From Chroococcidiopsidaceae cyanobacterium YX2bin18 (GTDB lineage: Bacteria > Cyanobacteriota > Cyanobacteriia > Cyanobacteriales > Chroococcidiopsidaceae): 64,000 nucleotides of DNA. Position numbers and translations under genes: made by a program. Positions within the stretch are counted from its first letter, which is position 1. Every line of letters starts with the position of its first letter. Location: NCBI GenBank assembly GCA_030446505.1, contig JAUJND010000007.1:1-64000 (forward strand). The letters run 5' to 3'. Under the pieces are notes generated by a model that had not been told where the DNA came from, did not search any database, and saw only the letters and a program-made list of their open reading frames with translations. Positions 38,599 through 40,515 of this stretch are shown piece by piece.

Positions 38599-38887
38599 TA
38601 TCCAGAAAACAACAATCGTGTCCTCAAGCAGCAAGTGATTGCAGTAGGAATTGACCTCTGTTTCCTACACAAGCTACAGGATTAATATTATGTCGCTTTG
38701 AGTTAGTTCTAGAAATGAGATTAGGTGTATTTAGCGAAAACTCAAGCAACTTTTTTGGGCTTTATTACACTGAAGGATATACAGAAAATTTCAGCTTTTT
38801 GTTCTGTAGCGGATGTTATACAGAAAAATTCCATCTAATTACGAGTTAGGCAGCCTCGTAACTGGGATCTCTGTACTGGAGTTCGCT

Positions 38888-39246
38888 ATGATTCGACCGA
38901 CCACGCCCGATGACACAACCGCGCTATTGCCCTAGCCGATGCAACCGGACTCTTACAGCATAACCAACTTGAGGAGATTGGCGAAATGCTGTCTGATTAC
39001 TTTGGTGGTAACAACAGCGACGATCGCTTCTGGATCACCGACAACGACAACGGAGCAGTGGGGGTTGCCTACTGAGAGATGGAACGGATGACCGATGGGA
39101 CGTGGAACCTACAATTGATTGCTATCCGACCCGACCACCAAGGACAAGGACGTGGTGCGACCCTGCTACGCTACGTTGAACAAACGTTGACGACGCGCGG
39201 TGGGCGTGTGCTGCTGGTGGAAACGTCGGGGCTGCCGGCAGGGTAA
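38888..39246 (+). pseudogene. truncated GNAT acetyltransferase relic
   Basis: Translation gives MIRPTTPDDTTAL, a frameshift, ALADATGLLQHNQLEEIGEM, DDRFWITDNDNGAVGVAY, an in-frame TGA, EMERMTDGTWNLQLIAIRPD, HQGQGRGATLLRYVEQTL (the acetyl-CoA loop) and LLVETSGLPAG then TAA. The usual last 40 residues of such GNATs are missing. Base composition is higher in G+C than the flanks, which suggests transfer. A relic at the edge of the RelE/Shedu pair. Confidence 0.7.
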
Positions 39247-39279
39247 GATAAGTTGCTTACAGTTGGAGTAGAATAAGCC

Positions 39280-39303
39280 TAATTATCCAAATTAGGATAA
39301 TTA
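39280..39303. promoter_or_regulatory. palindrome upstream of RelE/Shedu pair
   Basis: TAATTATCC (39280-39288) and GGATAATTA (39295-39303) form a perfect 9-bp inverted repeat with a 6-nt spacer, 130 nt upstream of the RelE-like start. It could be an operator for an autoregulated locus or a weak terminator for the relic GNAT. Confidence 0.45.
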
Positions 39304-39434
39304 CATTTTCAGCTTTTACGTAGTTCGCCCTAGTTGCTCGGTCTTGTCCAGTTCTTAGCCTCTCTTACTTAGGCTGCTTTGCTGAAAACATATTAATTGG
39401 AAGGATTTAATTATCTCCAAATTGTTCTTGTTAT

Positions 39435-39707
39435 ATGATAAATACTAGTACGCAGGCTCAGATTGCGATCAGATCGCTTCTTCCAAGTGACAAAGAGCGG
39501 GTTAAGCATTTTGTAGCTTTGCTTGAGCGTTTTCCTGATGACGAATATGTGAGACAACAAACGAAGAAGTTGAAGGGGAACGGGTTAGATAATCTTTATA
39601 TTATGCGAGTAACTCATAATTTAAGGCTAATCTTCCGATACTCTCAAGATGTAGTTGAAATCCTTGATGTTGTGACTCATGACAGGCTTGAGAGGATGCA
39701 TGGATAA
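39435..39707 (+). CDS. RelE/ParE-superfamily toxin-like protein
   Basis: A 90-residue protein that fits the RelE fold: an N-terminal helical hairpin with KERVKHFVALLERFPDDEYV, then KKLKGNGLDNLYIMRVTHNL and RLIFRYSQDVVEILDVVTHD. The Arg residues near 58 and 64 and the His near 82 are where RelE-type mRNA interferases have active-site residues. No antitoxin gene is seen up- or downstream. The gene ends 5 nt before a DUF4263 (Shedu) gene on the same strand, so the two probably share a transcript. Confidence 0.75.
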   Translation: MINTSTQAQIAIRSLLPSDKERVKHFVALLERFPDDEYVRQQTKKLKGNGLDNLYIMRVTHNLRLIFRYSQDVVEILDVVTHDRLERMHG

Positions 39708-39712
39708 AATCC

Positions 39713-40354
39713 ATGAAAGAGTTTAAAAGCTTCACATTTGACCCTCAAGCCTGCCGCAAAGAACTAAATGAGCTAAAAGTTCATCTTGATAGTAAATCTG
39801 AACTGAATGAAAGGAAAGATGTGCTGCCCTTCTTTAAAAAGAGGGAACATCTTTCATCGTTTATTGGTTCCTACTTTCCATACATTTCAAGCTTCGATAG
39901 GCTTGCTTATGAATATGATATCTTTGGTGATTTCAAAGCAGATTTAGCAATTGGCGATTTTGAATCAGGTTGGTACGGCTTTATAGAATTTGAAGGAGCT
40001 AGTGAGACCAGCATCTTTGAGAAAAAGGGTGATAAAGTAACTCCCGAATGGTCTACTTGCTTTGAACATGGCTTTAGTCAAGTGGTGGATTGGTTTTGGA
40101 AGTTGTCAGCATTGGAATATACACGGGAATTTTTCTTTCGGTTTGGCAGCGAGTTTACAGGCTATGAGGGGATGCTAATTATCGGTAGAACTGAAGGACT
40201 CGACCAAAGAGAGCGAGATCGATTACGATGGCGGCGAGATAGACTTATCGTCAATTCCAAACATATTCACTGTGTTACTTTTGACGAACTCTACTCTGAT
40301 CTTGATACAAGACTTCGTTATTATGAAGCTGCTTTTCTTGCTGATGAAGAATAA
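39713..40354 (+). CDS. Shedu-family (DUF4263) putative nuclease
   Basis: A 213-residue protein whose centre matches DUF4263, the core domain of Shedu anti-phage nucleases: DFKADLAIGDFESGWYGFIE, FEGASETSIFEKKGDKVTPE, FEHGFSQVVDWFWKLSALE, MLIIGRTEGLDQRERDRLRW and VNSKHIHCVTFDELYSDLDT. Candidate metal ligands are D77 and E92/E94; the usual E-x-K lysine position is held by Glu (FIEFEG), so catalytic activity is uncertain. It is shorter than typical SduA and lacks an N-terminal sensor domain. Its tight coupling to a RelE-like gene is unusual. Confidence 0.75.
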   Translation: MKEFKSFTFDPQACRKELNELKVHLDSKSELNERKDVLPFFKKREHLSSFIGSYFPYISSFDRLAYEYDIFGDFKADLAIGDFESGWYGFIEFEGASETSIFEKKGDKVTPEWSTCFEHGFSQVVDWFWKLSALEYTREFFFRFGSEFTGYEGMLIIGRTEGLDQRERDRLRWRRDRLIVNSKHIHCVTFDELYSDLDTRLRYYEAAFLADEE

Positions 40355-40515
40355 GTTTTTAGTTCCTCCTAAGATAAGCTAACCCTGAGTTGGAATCACA
40401 ACTGTATTAAAGATTTATGTAAGAGCTAGAGGTTAACTGCGTTGGCTCAACTGGAGTTGTTAACTTTAGTAATATATCCGCTAAAAAGTTTCCCCTGTCT
40501 CAGGGTTATCTCGTT

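What the first reader, a model, noticed from the sequence alone, without database searches (positions are those of the whole stretch)
39435..40354. RelE-like toxin paired with a short Shedu (DUF4263) nuclease
A RelE/ParE-fold ORF without any visible antitoxin ends 5 nt before a DUF4263 gene on the same strand. Shedu nucleases are known anti-phage proteins, usually single genes with their own sensor domain; here the sensor is absent and a separate RelE-like protein sits in its place. The E-x-K lysine also appears as Glu. One idea is that the two proteins form a complex in which Shedu holds or is triggered by the RelE-like partner. A 9-bp palindrome at 39280 may be its operator.
Basis: partly seen in the sequence, partly recalled or inferred. 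Interest (0 to 1): 0.72.

Follow-up and report, generated by a model that had tools for sequence, protein, structure and literature searches.

The report
Two-gene RelE–Shedu nuclease module
A cyanobacterial gene for a stripped-down anti-phage DNA-cutting enzyme (Shedu) travels across bacterial phyla, plasmids and phages as a fixed pair with a small RelE-fold protein, which probably stands in for the sensor domain the enzyme lacks.

Summary
A 90-aa RelE-fold ORF (39435-39707) ends 5 nt before a 213-aa Shedu ORF (39713-40354) that is only the nuclease domain: its model matches residues 202-408 of E. coli SduA (Z 13.5). In 41 of 43 loci with an intact Shedu of this clade, an intact RelE-like ORF lies directly upstream; the other two carry a frameshifted one. 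The pair occurs in Cyanobacteria (42 of 391 genomes, remnants included), Aliarcobacter, Ri, Enterobacter and Pantoea plasmids, a Vibrio phage and viral contigs. Six Shedu proteins of other clades had no RelE neighbour. The active site is E-x-E in 43 of 43, a BamHI-like clade feature rather than decay. RelE catalytic positions are not conserved apart from one Arg, and intact RelE-like ORFs survive in 10 genomes with no intact Shedu of this clade, so 'toxin' is unlikely. The palindrome is not conserved. Best reading: a two-gene Shedu whose regulator or sensor is a separate RelE-fold subunit; inferred, not shown. New variant of a known kind. The key Shedu classification paper (Gu 2025) could not be read, so prior description is not excluded.

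The parts
39435..39707 (+). RelE-fold protein (90 aa), proposed regulatory/sensor subunit; R64 (codon 39624-39626) and D78 (codon 39666-39668) are its only near-invariant polar residues
   Evidence: purifying selection in relatives
39713..40354 (+). Short Shedu (DUF4263, SduA_C) PD-(D/E)xK nuclease, nuclease domain only (213 aa)
39911..39913 (+). E67 codon, proposed active site (42 of 43)
39941..39943 (+). D77 codon, proposed active-site Asp (43 of 43)
39986..39994 (+). E92-F93-E94 codons: E-x-E in place of E-x-K (43 of 43)
40079..40081 (+). Q123 codon (43 of 43)
38750..40473 (.). About 1.7 kb present here but absent between lgt and rlmN in the same-genus genome G001 and family member G005: the acquired or lost segment that carries the pair

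Best explanation
This is a two-gene Shedu anti-phage system. The Shedu protein is a bare PD-(D/E)xK nuclease core with an E-x-E (BamHI-like) active site. The regulatory N-terminal domain of single-gene Shedu is replaced by a separately encoded RelE-fold subunit, made from an overlapping or nearly abutting gene. The RelE-fold protein most likely binds the nuclease core, keeps it off host DNA, and admits or releases it when a phage cue is met (DNA ends or a phage protein). Shown here: the pairing, domain content, co-inheritance, purifying selection on both genes, an intact nuclease site, and no conserved RelE catalytic site. Inferred: physical contact, restraint versus targeting, anti-phage function, and the nature of the cue.
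For: Pairing: 41 of 43 loci with intact Shedu have an intact RelE-like ORF directly upstream, offset from a 14-nt overlap to a 22-nt gap, most often the 4-nt ATGA overlap; the other two have a frameshifted one. Spread: 42 of 391 genomes and 24 of 150 genera in the order, remnants included, plus Aliarcobacter, pRi, Enterobacter and Pantoea plasmids, a Vibrio phage beside a Gabija-like gene and viral contigs. Specificity: RelE-profile hits in 292 cyanobacterial genomes are bimodal, 18 above 80 bits and the rest at or below 43; the strong ones lie beside a Shedu or its remnant, except G148 and G281, where the Shedu is gone from the same locus. Six Shedu of other clades have no RelE upstream. Co-inheritance: RelE and Shedu distances correlate, r 0.83, 0 of 5000 permutations. 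Domain logic: the Shedu model covers only SduA's nuclease half, and RelE lies 5' of it, where an N-terminal domain would be. RelE is more diverged than Shedu in 99% of pairs, as expected of a sensor. A review states that the E. coli SduA N-terminal clamp senses DNA ends and that Shedu expressed in foreign hosts is toxic (PMC12904381).
Against: No physical interaction was tested; a fused-chain prediction could not be set up. No phage-protection data exist for this clade in what I could read. No natural RelE-Shedu fusion was found among the loci. Gene loss is only mildly asymmetric (15 Shedu-only versus 2 RelE-only, p 0.06 against a length-based null) and the events are not all independent. Most cyanobacterial copies were not shown to lie in defence islands.
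Confidence: 0.6

Rival explanations
1. RelE is a targeting or DNA-end-binding subunit (an activator, like the clamp of E. coli SduA) rather than an inhibitor; Shedu alone is inert.
For: The N-terminal clamp of E. coli SduA binds DNA ends (PMC12904381). RelE evolves fast, as a recognition part would.
Against: RelE folds are not known to me as DNA-end binders. The near absence of Shedu without RelE (2 of 43) also fits a need for restraint.
Confidence: 0.2
2. Toxin-antitoxin pair: RelE is an active mRNA interferase or gyrase toxin, and Shedu has become its antitoxin.
For: RelE fold; tight overlapping operon; presence on plasmids and phages.
Against: Intact RelE-like ORFs persist in 10 genomes with no intact Shedu of this clade. 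Only R64 and D78 are near-invariant polar positions; no conserved acid/base set. Shedu keeps an invariant nuclease site in 43 of 43, which a mere antitoxin would not need.
Confidence: 0.1
3. Two co-operating effectors: an RNA-acting RelE and a DNA-acting Shedu switched on together, as in abortive infection.
For: The RelE domain of Cami1, a cyclic-nucleotide-activated protein solved on the ribosome, is a close structural match (Z 10.9). Some Nostocales-type loci fuse the RelE domain to an AHJR-type nuclease and a HEPN-like region.
Against: No conserved RelE catalytic set.
Confidence: 0.07

Closest known systems
Shedu SduA (E. coli, PDB 8ps4/8ps5; B. cereus, 8ti8/8ti9)
   Same: Same nuclease fold over the whole short protein (Z 11.8-13.5), SduA_C domain
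   Different: No N-terminal domain; E-x-E instead of E-x-K; second gene for a RelE-fold protein. Types I and II Shedu are described as single-protein systems (PMC12409362).
PADLOC PDLC00379 (SduA)
   Same: Full-length profile match (E 1.4e-89); all 14 members of the clade alignment match it, so the nuclease clade itself is catalogued
   Different: The profile describes only the nuclease; the RelE ORF hits no PADLOC profile
RelE/YoeB/YafQ toxins of type II toxin-antitoxin systems
   Same: Same fold (Z 10-12.6)
   Different: No antitoxin gene, catalytic positions not conserved, partner is a nuclease
Type I Shedu VcSduA (GHKL domain fused to DUF4263)
   Same: Nuclease core with a regulatory module N-terminal to it (PMC12137116)
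   Different: There the module is fused and is an ATPase; here it is a separate RelE-fold protein

Membership tests
Shedu (SduA) | DUF4263 / SduA_C nuclease domain | tested here: met
   PF14082 E 1.6e-24; fold Z 13.5 to 8ps4
Shedu (SduA) | Intact PD-(D/E)xK active site | tested here: inconclusive
   E67, D77, E92 and Q123 conserved in at least 42 of 43, but the motif Lys is Glu (E94) in 43 of 43. BamHI is an active E-x-E precedent (established knowledge); activity not tested.
Shedu (SduA) | Anti-phage activity | not testable with these tools
   No experiment; presence in phages and on plasmids is indirect
Type I Shedu | N-terminal regulatory domain fused to the nuclease | tested here: not met
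   Model matches only residues 202-408 of E. coli SduA; protein is 213 aa
RelE/ParE superfamily (fold) | RelE fold | tested here: met
   Profile E 3.5e-7 to 1wmi; Z 12.6 to 3bpq
Type II RelBE-type toxin-antitoxin system | Conserved catalytic residues of a RelE/YoeB-type RNase | tested here: not met
   Of 54 RelE-like proteins only R64 (49) and D78 (50) are near-invariant polar positions; no conserved acid/base set
Type II RelBE-type toxin-antitoxin system | Adjacent small antitoxin gene | tested here: not met
   No recurrent third ORF within 400 nt beyond close relatives
Type II RelBE-type toxin-antitoxin system | Toxicity of RelE alone | not testable with these tools
   Indirect: intact RelE without intact Shedu in 10 genomes

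The most novel reading that the evidence does not exclude
A previously undescribed two-component Shedu class in which a catalytically retired RelE-fold protein acts in trans as the sensor/inhibitor of a nuclease-only Shedu: a toxin fold re-used as the safety catch of an anti-phage DNase, spread across at least three phyla, plasmids and phages.
Probability: 0.4. Interest if true: 0.75.

Novelty: new variant of a known kind. Interest (0 to 1): 0.6.

Why it matters
Shedu is treated as a single-protein system whose fused N-terminal domains set specificity. A natural split into a constant nuclease core and a separate RelE-fold partner would allow sensing and cutting to be studied apart, would suggest a function for an orphan group of RelE-like proteins, and would tell annotation tools that PDLC00379-type Shedu loci are two-gene systems.

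Tried and rejected
Palindrome as operator: present once in the genome, but 22 of 24 related upstream regions have no comparable repeat and the two that do have other sequences. E-x-E as decay: rejected, invariant in 43 of 43; two other cyanobacterial Shedu also read E-L-E (L042, L048). PDB sequence search with single proteins or the Shedu profile: no useful hits; fold search succeeded where sequence failed. Fused RelE-Shedu prediction: the alignment misplaced the RelE rows, not pursued. Viral contigs with the single window protein: none; with the alignment: five loci; further queries added none. Searching other phyla by genome was not possible from this centre. Literature: four papers hold both 'Shedu' and 'RelE'; one was opened and concerns a different system, the other three were not opened. 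Gu 2025 is not held, and Loeff 2025 was seen only through citing papers.

Full report
What is there. The window lies in a draft cyanobacterial genome (4.15 Mb). A 90-aa ORF at 39435-39707 is followed after 5 nt by a 213-aa ORF at 39713-40354 on the same strand. The second is a Shedu nuclease (SduA_C E 1.6e-24; PADLOC SduA PDLC00379 E 1.4e-89 over 206 of 211 positions). The first is RelE-fold: weak as a single sequence, clear as a family profile (archaeal RelE 1wmi E 3.5e-7) and as a predicted structure (pLDDT 90, Z 12.6 to 3bpq).

The pair is a unit. I collected 65 loci from cyanobacterial genomes, plasmids, phages and viral contigs and scored both genes with profiles. In 41 both genes are intact (one of these, L128, has a frameshift near the Shedu C terminus), with the RelE-like gene always directly 5' of Shedu: for the 39 pairs where the offset could be read, from a 14-nt overlap to a 22-nt gap, most often the 4-nt ATGA overlap. 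Two loci have an intact Shedu with a frameshifted RelE (L028, L035), 15 an intact RelE with a broken or missing Shedu, and 7 have lost or broken both. Hosts include 42 of 391 genomes of the order (24 of 150 genera, remnants included), Aliarcobacter, Rhizobium Ri, Enterobacter and Pantoea plasmids, and Vibrio phage 10N.286.54.E5_PE002, whose depositors already noted 'RelE-like' and 'Shedu__SduA' side by side next to a Gabija-like gene. Distances of the two proteins correlate (Mantel r 0.83, 0 of 5000 permutations).

Controls. A RelE-family profile run over 292 cyanobacterial genomes gave 18 hits above 80 bits and the rest at or below 43 bits. By their scores the weak ones look like ordinary RelE-superfamily proteins, though at least one (G168:C34) is a diverged member beside a Shedu remnant. 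The strong hits lie at this kind of locus: beside a Shedu or its remnant, or, in G148 and G281, where the Shedu is gone from the same neighbourhood between the RelE fusion and a phosphohistidine-phosphatase-like gene. Six Shedu proteins of other clades in the same phylum (L042, L044, L047, L048, L050, L056) have no RelE-like gene upstream. No third gene recurs at the pair beyond close relatives, so no hidden antitoxin was seen.

What each part can do. The Shedu model (pLDDT 89, pTM 0.88) aligns to residues 202-408 of E. coli SduA (Z 13.5, 3.8 A, 183 residues) and 182-380 of B. cereus Shedu: it is the nuclease domain alone. E67 (42 of 43), D77, E92, E94 and Q123 (43 of 43) are conserved. The motif is E-x-E rather than E-x-K. 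E-x-E is active in BamHI (established knowledge), and such conservation argues for an active enzyme. In the RelE-like protein only R64 (49 of 54) and D78 (50 of 54) stand out among polar positions (the printed position labels there run two too high), so an RNase activity is not supported. Both genes are under purifying selection in most comparisons, with RelE the more diverged. In a group within one genus that has lost or broken Shedu, RelE dN/dS rises to about 0.3-1.0, with one outlier at 2.3 from very few changes; this is suggestive of relaxed selection once Shedu is gone.

Who needs whom. Ten genomes (G027, G095, G133, G148, G168, G281, G504, G516, G618, G662) carry an intact RelE-like ORF and no intact Shedu of this clade. 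That argues against RelE being a toxin that Shedu neutralises. The reverse state, intact Shedu without intact RelE, is rare (2 of 43). This fits a restrainer, but Shedu is also the longer target; against a length-based null the imbalance (15 versus 2) has p 0.06 and the events are partly related, so I treat it as a hint.

Mechanism. In E. coli SduA the N-terminal clamp binds DNA ends, and Shedu is toxic in foreign hosts (PMC12904381); types I and II Shedu are called single-protein systems (PMC12409362). I propose that the RelE-fold protein is the missing regulatory module in trans. Whether it restrains or targets is not settled. In several loci the RelE domain is itself fused to an AHJR-type nuclease and a HEPN-like region, next to a RusA-like gene.

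History here. In the same-genus genome G001 and family member G005 the flanking lgt and rlmN genes are collinear without the 1.7 kb that carries the pair, and none of the other genomes of the family that were searched carries it: patchy, mobile inheritance, as for defence genes.

Limits. Gu et al. 2025, which defines Shedu types, could not be read, so prior mention of this pairing is possible. No interaction or activity was tested. Genome sampling was limited to Cyanobacteria; other phyla are seen only through plasmids, phages and viral contigs.

Noticed in passing
L021, L022, L023, L068, L070, L071, L102, L105, L117, L131, L132: The RelE domain is fused behind an AHJR-type REase (PF18743, E 1.4e-22) and a HEPN-like region carrying an R-N-x3-H motif, with a RusA-like gene just upstream; in G133 (L052) the AHJR-HEPN part is a separate ORF. 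Possibly a second effector attached to the same adaptor.
   Followed up: partly
window 38880-39247: A GNAT acetyltransferase-like remnant with stops lies just upstream of the pair, inside the 1.7 kb absent from relatives (judged by eye).
   Followed up: no
L056 (G000:C31:24011-24481): A second, weak Shedu-like ORF (38 bits, D-L-K motif) elsewhere in the same genome, beside a transposase-like ORF and without a RelE neighbour.
   Followed up: partly
L042, L048: Another Shedu clade (266-275 aa, C-terminal extension) also has E-L-E instead of E-x-K, so the substitution occurs in more than one clade.
   Followed up: no
L034:3452-5618: On a viral contig the pair sits among phage tail-like genes and follows an ORF that looks like a Panacea (DUF4065) domain, judged by eye only; a possible phage cargo spot.
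   Followed up: no
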